This document shows positions 33,054-43,392 of a stretch of 64,000 bases of DNA, in pieces. The notes under the pieces are model-generated. The model had not been told where the DNA came from and searched no databases. It worked only from the letters and a program-made list of their open reading frames with translations. The stretch comes from Flavobacteriales bacterium (GTDB lineage Bacteria; Bacteroidota; Bacteroidia; Flavobacteriales_D; Crocinitomicaceae). Position numbers and translations under genes: made by a program. The DNA is taken from contig CANGJM010000011.1 of NCBI GenBank assembly GCA_947454525.1, positions 59,619 to 123,618 of the forward strand, written 5' to 3'. How positions within the stretch are numbered: position 1 is the first letter of the stretch; each line of letters opens with the position of its first letter.

Positions 33054-34492
33054 TCATTTTACCACTTATTCTTGGAATCATTGCTTTCTTTCTTCCGACT
33101 AATTGGGTTCGTCCATTTGGATTATTAGCAAGCCTTAGTGTTCTAGCAGTTTCCATTGTTCATTTGATGAACTTTGATCCAGCGAACTATGTACTCATCT
33201 TGAATCCAGCGGAAGTTTTTCCATTGGGATTAACCTTTAAAATGGGTTACGATGGATTGGCTTTAGTCATGGTCTTGTTAACGAATGCGGTCATCAGCAT
33301 TATTTTGTTAGCGAATTGGAACAGAGAAATTTCTTCCAATGCCCGTTTTACCGGATTGGTTCTTTTGATGCAATGTGCTTTGTTGGGCTTGTTCACATCA
33401 CTTGATGGAATTTTGTTTTACACCTTCTGGGAATTAACCTTGATTCCAATTTTCCTTATTCTTTACTGGTTTGGAAAACAGGACAACAACCGCGCATTGT
33501 TCAAATTCTTCTTGTATACCTTACTTGGATCGTTGATGATGTTATTGTCCTTTATCGGATTGGCTTACTTCTCACCAAACTTCTCTTATTTCCAATTAGT
33601 TCAAGCGAACTTCGACGGAAAAGCTGTGGAAGCAGCAATGATCATGGGAGGAATTCTCTTTGCATTTGCTGTGAAGATTCCATTATTTCCTTTCCACACA
33701 TGGCAGGCGCCGACGTATACGAATGCACCGATGGCTGGAACGATGTTGCTTTCAGCATTGATGTTGAAAATGGCCTTGTACGGAATGATCAAATGGATGA
33801 TTCCAATTGGATTTGAAGGATTGGTTTATTTGAAATGGCCTGTGATCACACTTGGTGGAATTGGAATCGTTTATGGTGCAATTATCGCCATGAAACAAAA
33901 AGATTTGAAAACCTTGTTCGCTTATGCTTCTATTAGTCACCTTGGATTAATTGCAGCTGGCATCATGTTGTTTACCGTTTCAGCGATTGAAGCATCAATG
34001 GTTCAAATCATCAACCACAGCATCGTTGCAGTAGCTTTGTTCCTTTGTGCTGGAATCATTGAAGACCGTTTGAATACACGAAACATCGATGATTTAGGTG
34101 GAATTGCGAAAGTAGCTCCTCACTTTGGATTTTGGTTTGCAGTAATGACGTTTATTTCCGTTTCTGTTCCTTTTACAGCTGGATTCATCGGAGAGTTTGT
34201 ATTGATCAAAGAATTGTTCACCGCTCATTGGGTGATTGGAATTACCGCAGCATCGACTTTAGTTTTCGGAGCAGTGTACATGCTACGTGCCTACCAAGGA
34301 TCTATGTTTGGTCCAACAAAGGTGACCGTATTTAAAGATTTAACGTGGAACGAATACGCGGTATTCGGGATTTTAACATTGGCAGCAGTTGGATTTGGAT
34401 TATATCCACAAATAATCATCGATTTCATTAAACCTAGCATCAAATTCACACAAGAATTGATGGCGGGAGACTTAACATTTACAAAAAAATAA
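33044..34492 (+). CDS. nuoM: NADH-quinone oxidoreductase subunit M (antiporter-like), TTG start
   Basis: 482 residues. LFYTFWELTLIPIFLILYWFG carries the conserved Glu; VKIPLFPFHTWQAPTYTNAPMAGTMLLSALMLKM and KTLFAYASISHLGLIAAGI are the antiporter-family blocks. I see no ATG between the in-frame TAG at 33017 and the family-typical N-terminus, so TTG at 33044 (giving MELIILPLILGIIAFF) is the best start. It overlaps nuoL by 10 bp, which suggests coupled translation. Confidence 0.95.
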   Translation: MELIILPLILGIIAFFLPTNWVRPFGLLASLSVLAVSIVHLMNFDPANYVLILNPAEVFPLGLTFKMGYDGLALVMVLLTNAVISIILLANWNREISSNARFTGLVLLMQCALLGLFTSLDGILFYTFWELTLIPIFLILYWFGKQDNNRALFKFFLYTLLGSLMMLLSFIGLAYFSPNFSYFQLVQANFDGKAVEAAMIMGGILFAFAVKIPLFPFHTWQAPTYTNAPMAGTMLLSALMLKMALYGMIKWMIPIGFEGLVYLKWPVITLGGIGIVYGAIIAMKQKDLKTLFAYASISHLGLIAAGIMLFTVSAIEASMVQIINHSIVAVALFLCAGIIEDRLNTRNIDDLGGIAKVAPHFGFWFAVMTFISVSVPFTAGFIGEFVLIKELFTAHWVIGITAASTLVFGAVYMLRAYQGSMFGPTKVTVFKDLTWNEYAVFGILTLAAVGFGLYPQIIIDFIKPSIKFTQELMAGDLTFTKK

Positions 34493-34493
34493 G

Positions 34494-35846
34494 ATGGACG
34501 CAGTAATTATCATATTTATCACAGGACTAATTGGACTGTTTGTTGGAATGTTAAAAAAGAGTGAATTGACACTTGCTGTCACTTCTATCGGATTAATCGG
34601 CGGATTTATTTCCATGTTCTTGATTAACGATTACGAATCGATTTTCAGCACGTATGCTGGACTTACCTTCTCTCGAACGCAGCAAATGTTTGCTTTGTTA
34701 GCAATAGGACTGACCTTATTAGCCGTGTTGATGGGTTACGTTTACTACAAAGAAGAAGACGAGCACACAGCAGATTACTACGGATTGATTCTCTTCTCAT
34801 TAACAGGAGCTTTGTGTTTAATCGGATTCAGTAACATGTTTATGTTCTTCTTAGGTTTAGAGATTTTATCCATTCCGATTTACGTACTTGTTGGAATTCA
34901 AAAAGGAAATTCATTGGCATCTGAAGCATCCGTAAAATACTTCTTTACTGGATCATTTGCTACAGCCATCATGTTGTTTGGTATTGCGTTGATCTATGGT
35001 TCAACAGGATCTTTCGATTTAAATGAAATCCGCATGGCAATTGACATGGGAATGTCACATTCACCGATGTTAAACATTGGCGTATTGATGATGATGGCAG
35101 CCTTCATGTTCAAAGTTGGAGCTGTTCCTTTCCATTTCTGGGGTCCAGACGTGTACCAAGGATCTTCAAACGCAGTGATGGCTTATATGGCTTCCGTCGT
35201 GAAATTAGCTGCCTTATTTGCGTTTGTTCATTTGTTTAATTTCACTTTCAATCAATTAACGCCATTTGTTTCTGGATTGGTGCTTTTCGCAATCATTGTT
35301 TCCCTGTTCCTAGGATACATTTCCGCATTGAAACAAACATCTTTCCGAAGAATGATGGCCTACTCGAGTATTGCCAATACTGGATTCGCATTGTTCGCTG
35401 TTTTAAACCAACAATTTGGTGAAGCTTCCTTGTGGATCTTCATGATTGGATACGCATGTTCAACAGTTGCATTGGTAACCATCAATATGATTGTCGAAAA
35501 AGACACGGACGAACTGACAAACTGGAAAGGAATTGGCTATTCAAATCCACTGATCGGAATCACCTTGGTTATTTCCCTTTTATCCATGTCTGGAATTCCT
35601 CCTTTCACTGGATTCTTCGGTAAATACTTATTGTTATCCAGTGCCTTTGCGAATTACTTACCGTTCGTTGTCTTGGCAATCATCGCTTCATTGATCGGAG
35701 CATACCTTTACCTGCGTTTAATGGTCATTTCGCTATCTCGCGAGGGAGAAGGGCAGAAAATCAAAATGACAGCCATTCAAGCGCTTGTTTTGGTTCTTTG
35801 TTTAGCAGGAGTTCTTGGTGGATGGTTGGTTTTATTGATAAAATAA
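34494..35846 (+). CDS. nuoN: NADH-quinone oxidoreductase subunit N (antiporter-like)
   Basis: 450 residues. FLGLEILSIPIYVLVGIQKGN holds the conserved Glu; MFKVGAVPFHFWGPDVYQGSSNAVMAYMASVVKLAAL and SFRRMMAYSSIANTGFALFAV follow. It closes the operon 1 bp after nuoM. All 14 subunits are present in canonical order, so the genome has a complete proton-pumping complex I in a single transcription unit. Confidence 0.97.
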   Translation: MDAVIIIFITGLIGLFVGMLKKSELTLAVTSIGLIGGFISMFLINDYESIFSTYAGLTFSRTQQMFALLAIGLTLLAVLMGYVYYKEEDEHTADYYGLILFSLTGALCLIGFSNMFMFFLGLEILSIPIYVLVGIQKGNSLASEASVKYFFTGSFATAIMLFGIALIYGSTGSFDLNEIRMAIDMGMSHSPMLNIGVLMMMAAFMFKVGAVPFHFWGPDVYQGSSNAVMAYMASVVKLAALFAFVHLFNFTFNQLTPFVSGLVLFAIIVSLFLGYISALKQTSFRRMMAYSSIANTGFALFAVLNQQFGEASLWIFMIGYACSTVALVTINMIVEKDTDELTNWKGIGYSNPLIGITLVISLLSMSGIPPFTGFFGKYLLLSSAFANYLPFVVLAIIASLIGAYLYLRLMVISLSREGEGQKIKMTAIQALVLVLCLAGVLGGWLVLLIK

Positions 35847-35901
35847 GATCCTTCTTCTATTTTCTACCAACCTAATTACATATTCAAACGTCTTTAGGTC
35901 A

Positions 35902-36468
35902 ATGCATAAAGAAGTTCAAATTTTCGAGGCACTCATCGATCGTTGTATTCAACGAGACGAAAAGGCACGAAAAGAACTTTATGATTTATTTTCTGCTCAA
36001 ATGTTTAATGTCTGTTTGCGCTATGCGAAAAACAGAAGTCAAGCAGAAGATATTTTTCAGGATGCATTTATTAAGGTATTTGAGAACTTACCCAAACTAT
36101 CGAACAAAAATCAATTTCCAGGTTGGATCAAACGCGTGTTCGTTAATACAGCAATTGATAATATTCGTTTGAACAACAAATATGAATCAAACGAACATCT
36201 ACATGTCATTGAACATTTTTCGGATGTTGAACCATCCATTATTGATGAAATGGCTCACGAAGATTTACTCGCACTGGTGCAAGAATTACCACCACGAGCA
36301 AAAATTGTCTTCAACTTATTTGTCATTGAGGGATATTCACATAAAGAAATAGCGGAGGAATTAGGTATAAACATTGGGACATCAAAGTCACACCTATTCG
36401 ATGCGAAAAACATATTAAAATCGAAATTATTAATCAAAGAAGCCAAATTATTTAGTATTGTCAGCTAA
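35902..36468 (+). CDS. RNA polymerase ECF sigma factor
   Basis: 188 residues. Region 2 spans about residues 10-85 with FNVCLRYAKNRSQAEDIFQDAFIKVFENLPKL and FPGWIKRVFVNTAIDNIR; region 4 spans about 125-180 with LVQELPPRAKIVFNLFVIEGYSHKEIAEELGINIGTSKSHLFDAKNILK, an HTH for the -35-type element. There is no region 1 or 3, so it is extracytoplasmic-function type. It is followed 3 bp later by a gene whose short cytoplasmic N-terminus and single membrane segment could be the anti-sigma. It stands 55 bp after nuoN with no clear terminator between them. Confidence 0.93.
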   Translation: MHKEVQIFEALIDRCIQRDEKARKELYDLFSAQMFNVCLRYAKNRSQAEDIFQDAFIKVFENLPKLSNKNQFPGWIKRVFVNTAIDNIRLNNKYESNEHLHVIEHFSDVEPSIIDEMAHEDLLALVQELPPRAKIVFNLFVIEGYSHKEIAEELGINIGTSKSHLFDAKNILKSKLLIKEAKLFSIVS

Positions 36469-36471
36469 GCA

Positions 36472-37872
36472 ATGAAAAGAGAACTAGATCCATTCGAGTC
36501 CAAACTAAAGGAAAAACTTCAGGGAAAAGCACAGTTCCCGGAGGACATCCTATGGAAAAGATTGAACGATGAACTCCTTCGTTCGGATCAACAAGTCGCG
36601 TCAAAAAATCGCTACTGGATTCTTGGTGCAGCGTTACTTGTGTTCATTTCTCTTGGGACAGGTTATTTCATCGGTGTTCGTCAAGAAGCTTCCAGAAATC
36701 TTGCTGTAAATACGGCATCTTCTGCTTCTAAACTTCCTATAAGACTTCATTCGGTTTCACCTTCGAAACAATCAACTGGTATCAAAGCTCTGCAAAAAAA
36801 GGAAACGGTTAATTATCTTCAAAGAAAACAAACCAGCACCTTTGTACCGCTTTCCAAGAATGAGCTGAACAGAAATAGCTCCTTAACAATTGTCAAGAAT
36901 CAGGATGAATTTTACACTATTGATCTAGCTCAAGTAAATACCAAAGAAAATATCCGAACACTTCCGTCATCGAATGTGATTGAAAATGCGAATATGAACG
37001 CTGAATCATCCGTCATTCCGTCAACACAACAACATGACCTATTCGATGATTTTTCATTGGAAAAACTTGCACTCCGTAAATCTCCACCTTTACTTTCCTC
37101 GAATACCACGATGGCAAAAGGGTCGCCCTATAAAAAACATTTCCCTACGTTTTTGTCCGCTAGCATAGGATTTCAACCAACTGAAAACAATCGCTTTCAA
37201 ATCGATCGGATTTACGGTACTGGATCCAAATTCTCGGGCAACGAAATAGGACTATCCACACTCAATGTAAAACTTGGATTACAGGCACAATTGGGCCGTC
37301 ATTTCGAACTTGGGACAGGCTTCGGAACTTACTCCTATTTAACGCAACAAACGGTTCAAAATCAAATCGTGGAAATAGATCCACTCATAAATCAGTTGAA
37401 TTTTGAATCCTCCATCAGTTCTTTTGAAATACACGAAGATCATTTGCACGATGACCCTGAGGATCAAGAAGAAAACGAATTGAATTTTGAAGATTCGACT
37501 TCGTTCCATTTGAACTATCAACTTTCAAATACAATAAAAAGCATTCAAGTACCAGTGACAGCTGGCTTTGTTTTTCAAGTCAACAAATACACGTTCACAT
37601 TGAAAACCGGATTCATCTTCAACCACATTACGCAAGCGAATCAAGTGCTAAACATCAGTGGATTCAATGCCATTCGAACAAATGTACAATCACAACTTGT
37701 TTCTAATTCCTTTTATCAACTTTTTCAGGTCGGGGCTGAATTCCCTGTGTCATCTCATGTCTCTTTGATGCTTTCGCCATCCTATAGCCATGCCTTAAAA
37801 TCGATTTCTAAATCATCTACGCTTCGTCCAAATTCACTGGGACTTGAATGTGCATTGAAATTCTATTTTTAA
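36472..37872 (+). CDS. Probable sigma-partner: inner-membrane anchor joined to an outer-membrane-type barrel
   Basis: 466 residues in three parts. Residues 1-47 are charged and cytoplasmic-looking (DPFESKLKEKLQGKAQFPEDILWKRLNDELLRSD). Residues 48-68 are one membrane helix (YWILGAALLVFISLGTGYFIG). Residues about 70-215 are a low-complexity Ser/Lys/Gln linker. The last ~240 residues look like an outer-membrane beta-barrel (FLSASIGFQPTENNRFQ ... VKLGLQAQLGRHFELGTGFGTYS ... LGLECALKFYF). An acidic/His stretch (HEDHLHDDPEDQEENE) at about 321-336 breaks the barrel and might bind cations. It starts 3 bp after the sigma gene, the position of an anti-sigma factor. Anti-sigma activity is inferred from position and topology. 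Confidence 0.75.
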   Translation: MKRELDPFESKLKEKLQGKAQFPEDILWKRLNDELLRSDQQVASKNRYWILGAALLVFISLGTGYFIGVRQEASRNLAVNTASSASKLPIRLHSVSPSKQSTGIKALQKKETVNYLQRKQTSTFVPLSKNELNRNSSLTIVKNQDEFYTIDLAQVNTKENIRTLPSSNVIENANMNAESSVIPSTQQHDLFDDFSLEKLALRKSPPLLSSNTTMAKGSPYKKHFPTFLSASIGFQPTENNRFQIDRIYGTGSKFSGNEIGLSTLNVKLGLQAQLGRHFELGTGFGTYSYLTQQTVQNQIVEIDPLINQLNFESSISSFEIHEDHLHDDPEDQEENELNFEDSTSFHLNYQLSNTIKSIQVPVTAGFVFQVNKYTFTLKTGFIFNHITQANQVLNISGFNAIRTNVQSQLVSNSFYQLFQVGAEFPVSSHVSLMLSPSYSHALKSISKSSTLRPNSLGLECALKFYF

Positions 37873-37970
37873 TTTTCCTCGTTAGAAATTTACATTCTTT
37901 ACGTTTTTTTTGTCGGCCGATGAACCAAGTCTTAACTTAGTTGTACAGAGGCTCACTAAACGTCTACTTT

Positions 37971-40900
37971 ATGAATATTTCTTTCCCAAGCGTATCAAAA
38001 AAACACATCCGTTTTGGCCTCATCTTATTGATTGCCCTTATCGCTGGATTTCTTTTCAATTACTTGAATCGACCAGAAACACCGACAAACAAGAAAGATC
38101 CCTACGCTGGACTATTCAATCGTAAATCAGACGGATTGATTCAGGAACAAACCTTACTGGCAAACAAGGCGGTTCCCGTATTGAAAATCTCGAACGAACG
38201 AGAAAAAACCGTCCAACTTTCCAAATTATCGATTTCCTCCACAATTGAAAATGGTGTCGCTCGCACGCGCTACGACATGTATTTCTACAATGAGCAAAAC
38301 CGAGATTTGGAAGCAGAATTGCAATTTCCACTCGCCGACGGACAAACGATCTCCTATTTCGCGATGGACGTCAATGGTGAAATGAGATCCGGAGTAGCTG
38401 TTGAGAAAGTAAAAGCACGCATGGCATACGAGGCAACGGTTCGACAAGGAATCGATCCTGGATTAATCGAAAAAACCCAAGGAAATAATTTCAAATTACG
38501 CGTCTTCCCTGTTCCTTCAAAAGGGACAAAGCACATCATCATCGAGTACATGCATGAACTTGCGATGGATGTCAAACATGCCTATTACTATCTCCCGCTT
38601 TTCTTTAAAGAAAAAATTCCTGTTTTCTCCTACCACCTTTCCATCGTTGGCGAAGCAGAAAACCCAAATATTCTTCGTTCGTGTTCCGATGATTTCAAGC
38701 TTTCTGAAGTATCGAAAATTTACCAAGCATCTGTGCGTAAAAAACAATTTTTAGCGAACAAACCCATTGTGATTCGCCTACCGAATCGTCAATCTGAAGC
38801 AGTGGCTGCTTGCGAACAAAAGTCAAACGGAATCTTCTTCCATACGAATCTCAAACTTCCTCAAAAGTACGCACGCAAAAAGCAGCCTAAAAAAATAACG
38901 GTCATGTGGGACGTTTCTAGTTCTCGATTCCTATCCCAAATTCCAAAGGAAATCAGCTTGTTGAGGAAGTATTTAAGCACCATGAAAAAAGGAGAAGTGG
39001 AATTCATTCCTTTTGGATTCAAAGCGCTACCTAGTCAAACCTTTCGCATCAAAAATGGACAAAGCACCGAATTGCTTCAAGCCATTCAGAAACTTGAGTA
39101 CGATGGTGGAACGACCCTAAATCAACTTCCTTGGAATTCCTGCAAAGGCGAAGAAATCTTGTTGTTTACCGACGGACTTCAAAACCTAGGGAGCTCAAAG
39201 AGTCCCTTAACCTCGAAAGAAATCTACTGCATTCAAAGCGCCATTAAATCCGATAATGGATTCCTGAAAAATCTCTCACGGACTTCTCACGGTGAATTCA
39301 TCGACCTTTGTTCATTGAGTGAAAAGGAAGCCTTGGAGCGCTTGAATTCAAAATCGCTTCACTTTATGGGATTTGAACCGGATTCCGCATTGGAAAATTA
39401 TTATCCAAGTACCGGATTGGGGAACAACGGCATTCTTTCTGTTTCTGGAAGGTTAACGAAAGTGCGTCCTTTTGTCACAGCGAAATTCGGAATCGGAACG
39501 AAAGTCCTTTTAAAAACACGTATTCCGCTAGAGCTTAACAAGCAAAAAGCACATGCCAACCTAGAAAAAATGTGGGCGATTCACAAGCTCAACGAACTTC
39601 AAGAAAATTCCAAACAAAACGAAGAACAAATTCTAGAGACCGGATTAACATACCGGTTGGTTTCTGATTTCTCTTCCTTATTGATTCTCGACCGAGTGGA
39701 GGACTATGTTCAACACCGTATTCTTCCTCCAAAAAGTTTGCAAAAAGAATACTTCCAACAAGTGAAGGCTGCAGAAAAAGAAGAGAAAGAGAGCAGTTAT
39801 AACCACATGCGTGCCATCAAAAAGGAATGGAAAACGCAACAAGCCTGGTGGAAATCACATCGAAAAGAACCGAAGAAAAAAAGAAATCGACACAATACAC
39901 AACGTGCTCCCATGCCAGGTGATGATGTAGAAACGCGAAGTATGATTGTTGAAGGTTCTAATTTTGAATCTTCTCCACCTCCACCTACTTCGTGTGTTTC
40001 AGCTAATTCAACGGAACAAAGTACTGCTTTCCTTCCTCCCGTTGTAGAAAACGATGTAGTGGCGAATGAACCATTAGACACTTTAAGACAAGGAGCAGAA
40101 ATTCAATTATCAGCTGGATATGGTTTAGGTAATTCCGTTGGCGCGGTAAGTTATTCATGGGCTAGCGGTATTAGTTCCAATTTTATGGCCAGTACGATGG
40201 CTTCAGCAGGAACCTACACGATAAGCGTTTCGGATTTGAATGGTGTCAGCACCACAAATGTTGTAACGCGTGGTTCATTAAAGGTGAAAGCATGGGATCC
40301 GAAATCTCCGTATATGAAACGCATCAAAACCGTTCCGCTATCAAAAGCCTATCGTGTTTATTTGGAAGAACGTAAAAAGTTCGCTAGTCAACCATCGTTT
40401 TATTTGGACGTGAGCGATTACTTAATTTTCAAAAAACATTACGCCGAGGGAATTCGTGTCCTATCGAACATTGCCGAATTGGACATGGAAAATCACAGTT
40501 TACTGCGCATTGTCGCACAACGATTCCTGCAATTAGGTGAAAAGAAATTGGCTTTAGCGCTTTTCAAACACTTGATCGAACTTCGTCCGGAGGAACCACA
40601 GTCCTACCGTGACCTTGGACTCGCGTTCGAACAAACCGGCAATTACAACGAAGCCATTCGTTATTTATACAAAGTGGTCAAAGAACCATACGATGGACGC
40701 TTTGCTGGAATTCACTGCATTGCTTTGAATGAAATCAACAACATCATTGCCAGTCATCCGAGAAACTTGAAGTATGACTACATCGACAAAGTGTTTATTC
40801 GCAAAATGCCAGTGGACATTCGCATCGTCTTGAATTGGGATACTGATGATACCGATGTCGATCTATGGATCACGGAACCTGATGGCGAAAAATGCATGTA

Positions 40901-41174
40901 TTCGTACCCGCTGACCGCAAATGGTGGACGCATTTCCAATGACTTTACCCAAGGTTATGGTCCAGAAGAATACATGATTCACGTTGCACAGCACGGAACA
41001 TACCGCATTCAAGCGCATTATTACGGTGATCATCGTCCGACGGTAAATGGCAAAGCGACCTTAAGTATCCAATTGTTCAAGCAGTATGGAACTAGTTTGC
41101 AGTACAAACGAGAAATTACGCGCAGATTAAACGTCACAGACGACGTGGTTGACCTTGGAGAATTTGAGTTTTAA
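37971..41174 (+). CDS. VIT / von Willebrand A / TPR / DUF2135 membrane-anchored protein
   Basis: 1067 residues from ATG 37971; a TTG at 37941 is rejected. A membrane anchor lies at about residues 13-32 (FGLILLIALIAGFLFNYL). A VIT domain occupies about 80-190 (TRYDMYFYNEQNRDLEAELQFPL, MAYEATVRQGIDPGLIEKTQGN, FPVPSKGTKHIIIEYMHEL). A vWA-like fold follows from about 310 (ITVMWDVSSSRFL, LFTDGLQNLG), with an incomplete MIDAS. There is then a basic/proline-rich linker, a short SprB/PKD-like segment (about 710-765, YSWASGISSNF, AGTYTISVSDLNG), TPR-like helices (about 820-915) and a DUF2135 domain (VLNWDTDDTDVDLWITEPDGEKC). Such multi-domain proteins are envelope proteins with unclear roles. It lies 98 bp after the sigma-partner gene. 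Confidence 0.85.
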   Translation: MNISFPSVSKKHIRFGLILLIALIAGFLFNYLNRPETPTNKKDPYAGLFNRKSDGLIQEQTLLANKAVPVLKISNEREKTVQLSKLSISSTIENGVARTRYDMYFYNEQNRDLEAELQFPLADGQTISYFAMDVNGEMRSGVAVEKVKARMAYEATVRQGIDPGLIEKTQGNNFKLRVFPVPSKGTKHIIIEYMHELAMDVKHAYYYLPLFFKEKIPVFSYHLSIVGEAENPNILRSCSDDFKLSEVSKIYQASVRKKQFLANKPIVIRLPNRQSEAVAACEQKSNGIFFHTNLKLPQKYARKKQPKKITVMWDVSSSRFLSQIPKEISLLRKYLSTMKKGEVEFIPFGFKALPSQTFRIKNGQSTELLQAIQKLEYDGGTTLNQLPWNSCKGEEILLFTDGLQNLGSSKSPLTSKEIYCIQSAIKSDNGFLKNLSRTSHGEFIDLCSLSEKEALERLNSKSLHFMGFEPDSALENYYPSTGLGNNGILSVSGRLTKVRPFVTAKFGIGTKVLLKTRIPLELNKQKAHANLEKMWAIHKLNELQENSKQNEEQILETGLTYRLVSDFSSLLILDRVEDYVQHRILPPKSLQKEYFQQVKAAEKEEKESSYNHMRAIKKEWKTQQAWWKSHRKEPKKKRNRHNTQRAPMPGDDVETRSMIVEGSNFESSPPPPTSCVSANSTEQSTAFLPPVVENDVVANEPLDTLRQGAEIQLSAGYGLGNSVGAVSYSWASGISSNFMASTMASAGTYTISVSDLNGVSTTNVVTRGSLKVKAWDPKSPYMKRIKTVPLSKAYRVYLEERKKFASQPSFYLDVSDYLIFKKHYAEGIRVLSNIAELDMENHSLLRIVAQRFLQLGEKKLALALFKHLIELRPEEPQSYRDLGLAFEQTGNYNEAIRYLYKVVKEPYDGRFAGIHCIALNEINNIIASHPRNLKYDYIDKVFIRKMPVDIRIVLNWDTDDTDVDLWITEPDGEKCMYSYPLTANGGRISNDFTQGYGPEEYMIHVAQHGTYRIQAHYYGDHRPTVNGKATLSIQLFKQYGTSLQYKREITRRLNVTDDVVDLGEFEF

Positions 41175-41191
41175 CGAAAGTAATTCTTGTG
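41168..41191 (+). repeat. Left direct repeat of RAYT unit
   Basis: A 24-bp sequence beginning GTTTTAAC and including GAAAGTAATTCTTGTG, matching 41994-42017 except for C versus G at the eighth base. It covers the TAA stop (41172-41174) of the upstream gene. Confidence 0.9.
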
Positions 41192-41203
41192 TTTTTCAAC
41201 CCC

Positions 41204-41231
41204 GCTCCGCTGCAGTTGCACTGCTGCGGAA
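41204..41231 (+). repeat. Left inverted-repeat hairpin of RAYT unit
   Basis: 28 nt folding as TCCGC-T-GCAG / CTGC-T-GCGGA around a TTGCA loop. It is 26/28 identical to the reverse complement of 41961-41988; the two differences form one base pair (C-G here, T-A there), so the hairpin is preserved. Confidence 0.9.
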
Positions 41232-41314
41232 CATTTGCAGTTGCATTGCAACGGTACAATTCAAGCTGCATTGCCACGGTACAATTCAAGCTGCACTGCT
41301 GCAGAACAATTTTC
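41215..41314 (+). repeat. Four contiguous 25-bp tandem repeats
   Basis: Copies at 41215-41239, 41240-41264, 41265-41289 and 41290-41314, all exactly 25 bp. They share G(T/C)TGCA(C/T)TGC and GAACA or GTACA cores. Copies 2 and 3 share ACGGTACAATTCAA. The first copy overlaps the left hairpin, so the array looks like an expansion of it. There is no spacer between copies, so it is not a CRISPR array. Confidence 0.85.
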
Positions 41315-41329
41315 AACACAATCACTGTT

Positions 41330-41354
41330 TAAGATAAGATTTTTTCTTATCTTA
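41330..41354 (+). promoter_or_regulatory. Perfect 10-bp stem-loop just ahead of the RAYT start codon
   Basis: TAAGATAAGA pairs with TCTTATCTTA around a five-T loop, ending 5 bp before the ATG. In RNA it would occlude the ribosome-binding region, which could keep transposase translation low. It has no trailing T-run of its own, so it is not a good terminator. Confidence 0.6.
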
Positions 41355-41359
41355 AATCT

Positions 41360-41935
41360 ATGCAACAAGGTGTCAAACACAACATTAAGAAAAATACAAG
41401 CTATTACTTAACACTAACTGTCGTTGGTTGGGTAGATGTATTTACGCGACATAGTCATAAAGATGCTATTATCGAATCCCTAAGGTATTGTATAAAAAAT
41501 AAAGGACTAAATGTTTACGCATATTGTCTGATGACTAACCACTTACACATGGTGCTAAACTGTAATGAGCCTTTTCAACTTAAAGATGTGATTAGAGATT
41601 TTAAAAGACATACGGTAAAGACAATCATCGATCAGATAATCAATAAGCCCGAAAGTCGAAGAGAGTGGATGATTAGAGAATTTGAAGCAGCAGCAGATAA
41701 AACTGACCGAAATAAAACGTACAAATTTTGGAAAAGTGGTAATCATGCAATAGAACTATTCACTGAAAAATTTGTGTGGGAAAAGATAAATTATATCCAC
41801 AATAACCCGGTTAAAGAAAAATATGTGAAAAATCCACAGGAGTGGTTATACTCCTCAGCTTCAAATTATTGGTACGGTGAAGGTTTGTTGGAAGAGGTGC
41901 AATGTTTGACTCCACGATTAAAAAAGGTAAGATGA
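41360..41935 (+). CDS. REP-associated tyrosine transposase (RAYT, Y1_Tnp/HUH family)
   Basis: 191 residues of the IS200/IS605-like Y1 transposase family in its RAYT branch. The metal-binding HUH motif is HLH at residues 61-63 in YCLMTNHLHMVLNC. The RAYT-specific C-terminal block INYIHNNPVKEKYVKNPQEWLYSSASNYW is present; Tyr145 in that block is the likely nucleophile. The length and motif order suggest an active-site-intact protein. RAYTs cut and rejoin single-stranded DNA at REP hairpins. Its AT content and codon use look richer in A/T than the nuo genes, which fits horizontal origin. It is bounded by matching hairpins (41204-41231, 41961-41988), presumably its own substrates. Confidence 0.93.
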   Translation: MQQGVKHNIKKNTSYYLTLTVVGWVDVFTRHSHKDAIIESLRYCIKNKGLNVYAYCLMTNHLHMVLNCNEPFQLKDVIRDFKRHTVKTIIDQIINKPESRREWMIREFEAAADKTDRNKTYKFWKSGNHAIELFTEKFVWEKINYIHNNPVKEKYVKNPQEWLYSSASNYWYGEGLLEEVQCLTPRLKKVR

Positions 41936-41960
41936 TTTTTTTACTTTAAAAAAAAGATGG

Positions 41961-41988
41961 TTTCGCAGCAGTGCAACTGCAGCGAAGC
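41961..41988 (-). repeat. Right inverted-repeat hairpin of RAYT unit
   Basis: TTCGC-A-GCAG / CTGC-A-GCGAA around a TGCAA loop; inverted relative to 41204-41231 with one compensatory base-pair change. Confidence 0.9.
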
Positions 41989-41993
41989 AAAGT

Positions 41994-42017
41994 GTTTTAA
42001 GGAAAGTAATTCTTGTG
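41994..42017 (+). repeat. Right direct repeat of RAYT unit
   Basis: Second copy of the 24-bp sequence at 41168-41191, with one mismatch. It lies 61 bp before the next start codon. Confidence 0.9.
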
Positions 42018-42078
42018 ATATCCAATTAAAAGTGCATTTAGAAAAATAATTATTGTACTTTTAACCAAAACATACATC

Positions 42079-43392
42079 ATGCGTAAATTACTATTTTCCT
42101 GCTTTTTATTGAATTCACTCTTCTCTATCGCTCAAAATGTTCCCATTACTTTTGAACCAGGAGAGTTCGGTTCAACATGGTCTTGGACAGTTTTTGAAAA
42201 CGTAGGTAATCCACCATTGGAAATTGTGGTTAATCCAGATGTCACTGGACTCAACACATCTTCAAACGTAGCAAAGTTCACCGCTCTTCAAGGAGGAATG
42301 CCTTATGCAGGAGTGGAATGTGCGCATGGCGAAGTAGGAACGTTTACTTTAACTCCCGCGAATTGCATCGTGAAAATCATGGTCAACAAACCAGTTATCA
42401 GTAACGTAGGAATTAAATTTGCGACAGGATCTGGTGCGTCAACAGGCGAATTACTGGTTGCAAATACGCAAATCAACAAATGGGAGGAATTAACCTTCGA
42501 TTTCACACCGATTCTTGGTTTACCAACATCTAGTGGCATCAACCAAGTGATTGTTTTCCCTGATTTTCAAAACCGTACATCTACGAACATCTGTTATATC
42601 GACAACATCACCTTTGGAACTCCTGGTCCACCATTGGCAACTCCAATGACACCTGCTCCAGATCCAACATTCGCTGCAGTGGATGTGATTTCGATGTTCA
42701 GCAATGTGTACTCAGATGTTCCCGTGAACACATGGCAAACTGCATGGTCACAAGGAACCTTGAACGACATCCAAATTCAAGGAAACGACACAAAAAAATA
42801 TGCTGGATTGAACTTCGTTGGAGTTGAAACAACCGGAAGCAATATTTTGAATGTTTCCAATATGACGCATTTGTACCTGAACGTTTGGACAGCCAACATG
42901 ACGGAATTCCGTGTTAAACTTGTCGACTTTGGCAATGATTTATCCTATGCTGGTGGCGACGACACAGAACATGAATTGACCTTTACGCCTATTTTAGAAA
43001 GCTGGATGACTTTGGATATTCCTTTAACGAACTTCCTGAACCTGGCTTCCAACAATCACATTGCCCAATTGATTTTTTCTGGCAATCCAAGTGGAAGTGG
43101 TGTCGTTTATGTAGACAATGTATTGTTTCACAATGTTGTCACAGGAATCGAAACGATACAGGCAAACGAAATGAAACTTTACCCGAATCCTGTTCAAAAC
43201 GAATTATCGATAGCGCATCCAGAGAATTTGTCCTCCCTTCAAATTTATTCATTGACAGGTGAGAACATGCTTGTTCAAACGGATATGACAGCTGCAAACA
43301 TGGACGTTTCACCATTAGAAAGTGGCATGTACCTTTGTGTCATGGAAACCATCAGTGGAGAAATTCTTCAAGCGAAGTTCATTAAGGAATAA
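42079..43392 (+). CDS. Secreted T9SS cargo with two carbohydrate-binding-like beta domains
   Basis: 437 residues: signal peptide (MRKLLFSCFLLNSLFSIAQ), a first beta-sandwich-like domain (about 20-185, ITFEPGEFGSTWSWTVFENVGNP ... CYIDNITFGTPG), a Pro-rich linker (PPLATPMTPAPDPTF), a second similar domain (about 205-350, ISMFSNVYSDVPVNTWQTAWSQG ... VVYVDNVLFHN) and a type A T9SS sorting domain (LYPNPVQNELSIAHPENLSSLQIYSLTGE ... LESGMYLCVMETISGEILQAKFIKE). The domain endings YIDNITF and YVDNVLF are usual in CBM-like jelly rolls next to glycan-degrading genes. No catalytic domain is visible. Probably a surface-bound glycan-binding protein. Confidence 0.85.
   Translation: MRKLLFSCFLLNSLFSIAQNVPITFEPGEFGSTWSWTVFENVGNPPLEIVVNPDVTGLNTSSNVAKFTALQGGMPYAGVECAHGEVGTFTLTPANCIVKIMVNKPVISNVGIKFATGSGASTGELLVANTQINKWEELTFDFTPILGLPTSSGINQVIVFPDFQNRTSTNICYIDNITFGTPGPPLATPMTPAPDPTFAAVDVISMFSNVYSDVPVNTWQTAWSQGTLNDIQIQGNDTKKYAGLNFVGVETTGSNILNVSNMTHLYLNVWTANMTEFRVKLVDFGNDLSYAGGDDTEHELTFTPILESWMTLDIPLTNFLNLASNNHIAQLIFSGNPSGSGVVYVDNVLFHNVVTGIETIQANEMKLYPNPVQNELSIAHPENLSSLQIYSLTGENMLVQTDMTAANMDVSPLESGMYLCVMETISGEILQAKFIKE

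What the first reader, a model, noticed from the sequence alone, without database searches (positions are those of the whole stretch)
41168..42017. Compact RAYT unit bounded by 24-bp direct repeats that contain the host gene's stop codon
The RAYT gene is enclosed by hairpins in inverted orientation and then by direct repeats of 24 bp (one mismatch). The left repeat carries the TAA of the VIT/vWA/TPR gene, so the element sits exactly at that gene's 3' end and a repeat-mediated deletion would leave the gene unchanged. HUH/RAYT enzymes are not known to make target duplications, so the direct repeats imply another mechanism (staggered integration, replication slippage, or capture of a pre-existing duplication).
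Basis: partly seen in the sequence, partly recalled or inferred. Interest (0 to 1): 0.72.

Follow-up and report, generated by a model that had tools for sequence, protein, structure and literature searches.

The report
RAYT unit that duplicated its target
A small hairpin-flanked gene for a predicted DNA-cutting enzyme (a RAYT) sits at the end of a host gene between two near-identical copies of a 24-32 base sequence that a close relative lacking it carries once, so the unit likely jumped in and duplicated its landing site, which would make this supposedly stationary enzyme family mobile.

Summary
The RAYT gene (41360-41935) lies between inverted REP hairpins, and these between direct repeats 41168-41191 and 41994-42017 (23/24 identical; 28/32 over 32 bp). 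The left copy carries the host gene's TAA. The repeat core occurs elsewhere in the genome only at control level. G015, the closest relative over the contig (91% nt), has the empty site with one copy. L093/G126 has the unit and both repeats. G036 has a broken RAYT at the same site, without the right repeat; its RAYT is far less diverged (dS 0.27) than the flanking genes (1.46-1.76), so it came separately or by transfer. The pattern recurs: 19 of 75 RAYT loci in the order have direct repeats of about 20-160 bp, against 1 of 137 control segments. At six sites the repeat holds a neighbour's stop codon, and a second empty site (G313 against four relatives) shows a 43-bp duplication between convergent genes with touching stops. 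Against: 56 of 75 loci show no repeat, and IS200-like genes show repeats as often (6 of 29). Best reading: a mobile RAYT unit with long, variable target duplication; that the RAYT makes the cuts is inferred.

The parts
37941..41174 (+). host gene: VIT / TPR / DUF2135 protein, 1077 aa from the first listed start (orthologues align from about residue 10); its TAA lies in the left repeat
41168..41199 (+). left direct repeat: 24-bp core 41168-41191 (23/24), 32 bp in all (28/32), includes the host TAA
41204..41232 (+). left REP hairpin (arm of the inverted pair)
41211..41310 (+). array of four 25-bp REP-derived tandem units
41328..41356 (+). perfect 12-bp hairpin ending 3 nt before the RAYT start codon
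   Evidence: z -5.74
41360..41935 (+). RAYT, 191 aa, Y1/HUH transposase; NHLH and YIHNNP motifs intact
41960..41988 (-). right REP hairpin, inverted relative to the left one
41994..42025 (+). right direct repeat: 24-bp core 41994-42017; continues into the flank shared with the empty site of G015
42079..43392 (+). downstream gene, 437 aa, T9SS-sorted protein; marks the right flank in G015, G002, G036 and L093

Best explanation
A REP-RAYT-REP unit of about 0.8 kb lies at the 3' end of the VIT/TPR gene between two copies of a 24-32 bp target sequence that the empty site of a relative carries once, so it most likely inserted as a mobile unit and duplicated its target, with the RAYT predicted to nick and join single-stranded ends at offset positions that host synthesis would then fill in. 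Shown: filled and empty sites, ends set close to the REP pair, and the same arrangement with different repeat lengths (about 20-160 bp) at other RAYT loci. Inferred: that the RAYT itself cut the target, that the nicks were offset by a variable distance on the two strands (or that a strand joined at one end slipped back on its template before the other end closed), and that the length varies because only one end is fixed by the enzyme. The insertion itself need not have happened in the window's own lineage: the filled VIT-RAYT segment may have reached it by recombination from an L093-like donor. Because the repeat carries the gene tail and stop codon, insertion leaves the neighbours' proteins unchanged even where convergent genes leave no space between them; a deletion between the repeats would restore the old sequence.
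For: Empty site with one copy in G015, the closest relative compared over the contig (91.1% over 56.9 kb). L093/G126: same unit and both repeats, 23/23 core. One strong RAYT copy in the genome; REP pattern at 16 places, the two at the RAYT included, control 0. RAYT dS between window and G036 is 0.27 while the flanking genes have 1.76 and 1.46; four-fold sites 7/37 against 181/324, p 2e-5, and against 79/149, p 2e-4: the unit did not descend with its flanks in both. Direct repeats at score 20 or more in 19 of 75 RAYT loci against 1 of 137 pseudo-element segments; with a lighter mask 23 of 75 against 3 of 886 mismatched flank pairs. Repeats lie within about 35 nt of the inverted hairpin pair on both sides at seven of the 23 rows and on one side at others. 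Stop codons of neighbouring ORFs of 100 aa or more lie inside the repeat at six sites (VIT site, L095, L097, L145, L166, L175). Second empty site: G313 has a 43-bp duplication (42/43), and G351, G185, G356 and G291 have one copy, with the two stops touching or overlapping.
Against: 56 of 75 RAYT loci have no repeat at that score. Of the 19, at least three are not plain target repeats: L049 repeats the RAYT's own 3' end, L088 and L091 look REP-derived; L001 and L164 are one site, and L095 counts twice. G036, at the same site, has no right copy, and its RAYT is truncated with an internal TGA. IS200/IS605-type genes (NF033573) of the same order show repeats in 6 of 29, not fewer than RAYTs (p 0.8), and five of these six repeats occur exactly twice in their locus. 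Of 20 repeat queries at RAYT loci, 11 occur exactly twice, 8 three or more times, 1 once. The genealogy is mixed: at the VIT gene the window is closer to filled L093 (92.1%) than to empty G015 (87.0%), at the downstream gene and over the contig closer to G015. The repeat copies of window and of L093 resemble each other within a species more than across at two positions. No biochemistry.
Confidence: 0.48

Rival explanations
1. The unit is a passenger: foreign DNA with the RAYT gene was joined to the chromosome by host illegitimate recombination or template switching, which made the duplication without RAYT catalysis.
For: Repeat length varies widely and some loci show irregular arrays (L095, L128, L175), as microhomology-driven repair would give; IS200/IS605 elements are said to make no larger target duplications.
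Against: The repeats lie close to the hairpin pair at several independent loci, which points to an enzyme that reads REPs; foreign DNA of arbitrary ends would not.
Confidence: 0.27
2. The filled state was present in the common ancestor of window, L093 and G015, and G015 lost the unit by recombination between the repeats.
For: The direct repeats would allow exactly that deletion. G015 is closer to the window over the contig (91.1%) than filled L093 is (87.8%), so the tree alone does not make G015 primitively empty.
Against: G002 is empty too, and at the VIT gene and its last 300 bases the window is closer to L093 than to G015, so transfer of a filled tract explains the pattern. It concerns G015 alone: an original insertion is still needed, and the G313 site has four relatives with one copy.
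Confidence: 0.12
3. The repeats are the scar of tandem duplication: a segment made of gene tail plus RAYT was duplicated locally and the second RAYT was lost.
For: L095 (Brumimicrobium) has two full RAYTs and a third remnant, with copies of the gene tail between and after them; G346:C152 and G196:C6 hold fragment arrays.
Against: It does not explain how the RAYT first came between the gene and its flank; no second RAYT remnant lies after the right copy in the window, and the empty sites of G015 and of four relatives of G313 have one copy.
Confidence: 0.1
4. The 24-bp duplication existed before the RAYT unit arrived between its copies.
Against: No empty site with two copies was found; G015 and G002 have one copy, as do the relatives of G313.
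Confidence: 0.03

Closest known systems
RAYT / TnpAREP (REP-associated tyrosine transposase), REPtron
   Same: Y1 HUH transposase over the NCBIfam cut-off (90.9 against 80), one strong copy, flanked by inverted REP hairpins, REPs elsewhere in the genome
   Different: Described as having no evidence of mobility (PMC8266576, passages; PMC6006769, passages and section 30); here a filled and an empty site differ by the whole unit. The REPs lack the GT(A/G)G head of the gammaproteobacterial REPs (PMC2817692, passages).
TnpAREP subclass 2.6 of Bacteroidetes (PMC6006769)
   Same: NH[LIV]H and YIH[QN]NP motifs as tabulated there are present (NHLH, YIHNNP); Bacteroidota host; structures at the flanks
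   Different: The tabulated WQ, if it is the W124 position, reads WK in the window protein and WQ in five of its 11 aligned relatives; target duplications are not mentioned in the passages that I read (the terms 'target site duplication' and 'direct repeat' occur 0 times)
IS200/IS605 insertion sequences
   Same: Y1 HUH fold, hairpin ends
   Different: Below the NF033573 cut-off (21.5 against 55); IS200/IS605 elements are said to make no larger target duplications (PMC2817692), though NF033573 genes of this order do show flanking repeats in 6 of 29 loci
DDE insertion sequences with fixed target duplications (recalled)
   Same: Unit between direct repeats, one copy in the empty site
   Different: Repeat length is not fixed and is much longer; the only gene in the unit is a Y1 transposase

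Membership tests
RAYT protein family (NF047646) | score above the curated cut-off | tested here: met
   90.9 bits against 80; Pfam Y1_Tnp 31.5 against 23
RAYT protein family (NF047646) | HUH motif and catalytic tyrosine | tested here: met
   N60 H61 x H63 and Y145 invariant in 12 of 12 aligned proteins; model matches ISDra2, IS608 and 4er8, the RAYT-REP complex; model confidence moderate, mean pLDDT 62.4
[quoted passage not shown]
   29-bp arms, 93% complementary
RAYT / REPtron | cognate REPs repeated in the genome | tested here: met
   16 places within 3 mismatches including the two at the RAYT, control 0; fewer than most counts seen in the passages of PMC2817692
canonical gammaproteobacterial REPtron | GT(A/G)G head before the palindrome | tested here: not met
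   the sequence 5' of the left hairpin reads CCCCGC; so it is not filed there
TnpAREP subclass 2.6 (Bacteroidetes) | motifs NH[LIV]H, WQ, YIH[QN]NP | tested here: inconclusive
   first and last met, WQ reads WK; no tree against subclass members was made
IS200/IS605 family (NF033573) | score above the curated cut-off | tested here: not met
   21.5 bits against 55
insertion element with target duplication | empty site with one copy, filled site with two | tested here: met
   G015 against window; four relatives against G313; not met in G036, which has no right copy
insertion element with target duplication | fixed duplication length | tested here: not met
   21 to 161 bp at scored loci
insertion element with target duplication | transposition catalysed by its own enzyme | not testable with these tools
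   needs an assay

The most novel reading that the evidence does not exclude
RAYT units of Bacteroidota are autonomous mobile elements that insert with long, variable target duplications (about 20-160 bp), a mode not described for HUH transposases in the papers I read, and the duplication lets them land on gene ends, even between convergent genes whose stop codons touch, without harm to either gene.
Probability: 0.4. Interest if true: 0.78.

Novelty: new variant of a known kind. Interest (0 to 1): 0.62.

Why it matters
RAYTs are treated as domesticated, stationary enzymes that move REPs, and how the genes spread is open; the passages I read say that there is no evidence of their mobility. Filled and empty sites with target duplications give that question a concrete, testable form: a defined unit, defined ends, a defined product. 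A HUH enzyme with long variable duplications would also differ from the single-strand peel-and-paste of IS200/IS605 elements, which are said to make no larger duplications.

Tried and rejected
Considered and set aside: the repeat as a genome-wide motif (hits equal control); a plasmid or phage carrier (plasmids: 5 records, all under 60% identity; phages: 1 record at 25.5%); an Rfam element (0 matches in the window at gathering scores); a sequence relative in the PDB (best E 0.15), replaced by a fold match.

A control meant to show absence did not: the NF033573 set had repeats in 6 of 29 (7 of 29 with the lighter mask). Four of these loci looked at more closely (L273, L261, L282, L279) have hairpin-rich or array-like flanks, but five of the six repeats occur exactly twice in their locus. 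Ten of the 30 were scanned: all ten pass the IS200 cut-off, and nine also match the RAYT model below its cut-off. Of the five strongest loci (L253-L257) four could be scored and none had a repeat. I suspect that the rest are REP-associated, but did not test it; as it stands the control counts against RAYT specificity.

A comparison of the syntenic contigs of G000, G015 and G126 for further REP-only insertions with duplications gave the RAYT unit and REP-bounded gene differences, but no clean second case; the method saw only gaps of 15 bases or more inside matches and differences of 25 to 2500 between them. Three Cytophagales plasmid loci gave no direct repeat on two and a repeat array on the third.

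For this I lowered the best explanation from 0.50 to 0.48 and raised the 'G015 lost it' rival from 0.08 to 0.12.

Rows dropped: RAYT matches under 140 aligned residues and duplicate records; 8 of 83 loci for flanks under 150 bp; 1 of 30 NF033573 loci.

Full report
What is there. The window lies on contig C11 of a 2.83-Mb genome; the nearest named relatives of the RAYT are MAGs labelled Flavobacteriales and Crocinitomicaceae. The RAYT gene at 41360-41935 codes for 191 aa with a Y1 transposase domain (31.5 bits, cut-off 23) and passes the NCBIfam model of REP-associated tyrosine transposases (90.9, cut-off 80) but not that of IS200/IS605 (21.5, cut-off 55). N60-H61-x-H63 and Y145 are invariant in 12 of 12 aligned proteins. 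A model of moderate confidence (mean pLDDT 62.4) matches ISDra2, IS608 and the RAYT-REP complex 4er8. The gene lies between 29-bp inverted REPs (93% complementary), which lie between the direct repeats 41168-41191 and 41994-42017. The host TAA is at 41172-41174 in the left copy.

Size and rarity of the repeat. Against the empty site the duplicated stretch is best given as 32 bp (41168-41199 / 41994-42025, 28 of 32 identical); past CAA the left copy enters the REP and the right copy enters the flank shared with the empty site. The core is found in the genome only at these two places above the control level. The unit has one strong copy; a weaker RAYT-like match lies at C2:186926 (49.3 bits, below cut-off).

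Filled and empty sites. G015 has the same two neighbour genes with one copy of the 32-bp sequence and no RAYT between them; G002 is also empty but diverged. In the syntenic chain G015 and the window differ at this place by 826 bp. L093 (a contig of the same length as G126:C23) has the unit at the same site with both repeats. Relations are mixed: at the VIT gene the window is 92.1% identical to L093 and 87.0% to G015; at the downstream gene it is 84.7% and 87.8%; over the overlapping contig it is 87.8% and 91.1%. From about 38 to 42 kb of the window L093 is the closer, elsewhere often G015. So G015 may be the nearer organism, and the filled VIT-RAYT segment may have come to the window's lineage by recombination from an L093-like donor. 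This leaves the insertion with duplication as the origin of the filled state but moves it out of the window's own recent past; loss in G015 by recombination between the repeats is not excluded either.

A third filled site. G036 has a RAYT at the same place with an internal TGA, a truncated 3' end and no right copy. Synonymous divergence between window and G036 is 0.27 in the RAYT and 1.76 and 1.46 in the two flanking genes (four-fold sites p 2e-5 and 2e-4). The unit therefore did not descend with its flanks in both: it arrived separately at about the same place, or was carried across by recombination within short conserved flanks. I cannot tell which. Between window and L093 the RAYT is not significantly closer than the VIT gene (p 0.27), so one insertion for these two fits.

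Other RAYT loci. In 399 genomes of the order, 65 had a match at E 1e-30 or better. From the loci fetched, 83 distinct RAYT loci were kept and 75 had flanks of 150 bp or more. With inverted repeats masked, direct repeats at score 20 or more flank 23 of 75, against 3 of 886 mismatched flank pairs and 2 of 157 pseudo-element segments in the same loci, both of the latter lying on RAYT arrays. With hairpins masked as well the counts are 19 of 75 and 1 of 137. Of the 19, L049 repeats the RAYT's own end and L088 and L091 look REP-derived; L001 and L164 are one site and L095 counts twice. Lengths run from 21 to 161 bp. By copy number, 11 of 20 repeat queries occur exactly twice in their locus, 8 three times or more and 1 once.

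Gene ends. In the 23 rows, ORFs of 100 aa or more have their stop codon inside the repeat at six sites: the VIT site (two genomes), L095, L097, L145, L166 and L175. At L097 and L145 both convergent neighbours end in the repeat; at L095 the left gene ends in the longer repeat and the right gene in the outer copy. At L145 (G313) the repeat is 43 bp (42 identical); in G351, G185, G356 and G291 the same two genes end on touching or overlapping stop codons with a single copy. This is the second empty site and the clearest: without a duplication an insertion there would hardly spare both genes. At L097, three relatives (L185, L190, L196) show the two genes convergent and ending within about 25-50 bp of each other, so without a RAYT, and two more (L186, L189) with longer gaps; all are too diverged to align the repeat. 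L095 shows tandem units with repeats of 64 and 127 bp.

A control against me. Genes found with the IS200/IS605 model NF033573 in the same order show repeats in 6 of 29 loci, no fewer than RAYTs, and five of the six occur exactly twice. Four looked at more closely have hairpin-rich flanks, and nine of ten scanned also match the RAYT model below its cut-off, but I cannot claim that the duplications are specific to RAYTs. Four canonical IS200 loci had none, too few to count.

How it most likely works. RAYT binds its REP pair and joins a single-stranded form of the unit to a nicked target; the second strand is nicked, or the first strand slips back, at a variable distance, and host synthesis fills the gap, leaving two copies. 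Only the two states and the ends are shown; the strand events are inferred. The duplication would explain why such units are found on gene ends: those insertions are harmless and survive. Selection on survivors, not target choice, can account for the stop codons in the repeats.

What is known. PMC2817692 (passages) describes RAYTs as flanked by inverted REPs and states that IS200/IS605 elements make no larger target duplications. PMC6006769 (passages and section 30) says that there is no evidence that these genes are mobile, though horizontal transfer is likely, and defines a Bacteroidetes subclass 2.6 that this protein resembles; PMC8266576 (passages) repeats that there is no evidence of mobility. 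PMC3116915 (passages) reports excision of REPINs. PMC3686654 (passages) finds RAYT genes at novel chromosomal sites in three Pseudomonas strains and names duplication or horizontal acquisition. PMC3733652 (passages) has no use of 'duplicat' or 'direct repeat'. The listings, of which several are capped, showed no title or abstract on duplications at RAYT units; the library holds open-licence papers only.

Verdict. Observation confirmed; insertion with target duplication supported by two empty sites; catalysis by the RAYT likely but untested.

Noticed in passing
window 41328-41356: A perfect 12-bp hairpin (z -5.74 as DNA) ends 3 nt before the RAYT start codon; by eye L093 and G036 keep it with one or two mismatches and L095 has a different inverted repeat in the same place, so it may control translation.
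   Followed up: partly
window 35851-37881: About 2 kb with a gene that looks like an ECF sigma factor (recalled, not scanned) and a 466-aa gene just before the VIT gene is absent at this place from G015 and G126 (difference about 1957), while G002 appears to have the 466-aa gene there.
   Followed up: no
window 34001-42000: The window is closer to L093/G126 in most of this stretch and closer to G015 over the contig as a whole, as if a tract with the VIT gene and the RAYT had been exchanged.
   Followed up: partly
L246 (G000:C11 34.8-37.6 kb): Two gene segments of about 0.9 and 1.2 kb lie between same-orientation REPs in G000, while G015 has a single REP at each place: REP-REP recombination or REP-bounded gene gain.
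   Followed up: partly
window 41211-41310: The left REP is a four-unit 25-bp tandem array with a 22-bp stretch that G126 lacks; the array changes in length between species.
   Followed up: no
L162 (G346:C152) and L158 (G196:C6): Tandem arrays with three RAYT 3' fragments each suggest repeated local duplication of RAYT units.
   Followed up: no
L038 (G032:C77 around 1067): A 5'-truncated RAYT, 93% identical to the window's over 201 nt, sits behind a tRNA-Phe gene (899-972) and a terminator-like hairpin.
   Followed up: partly
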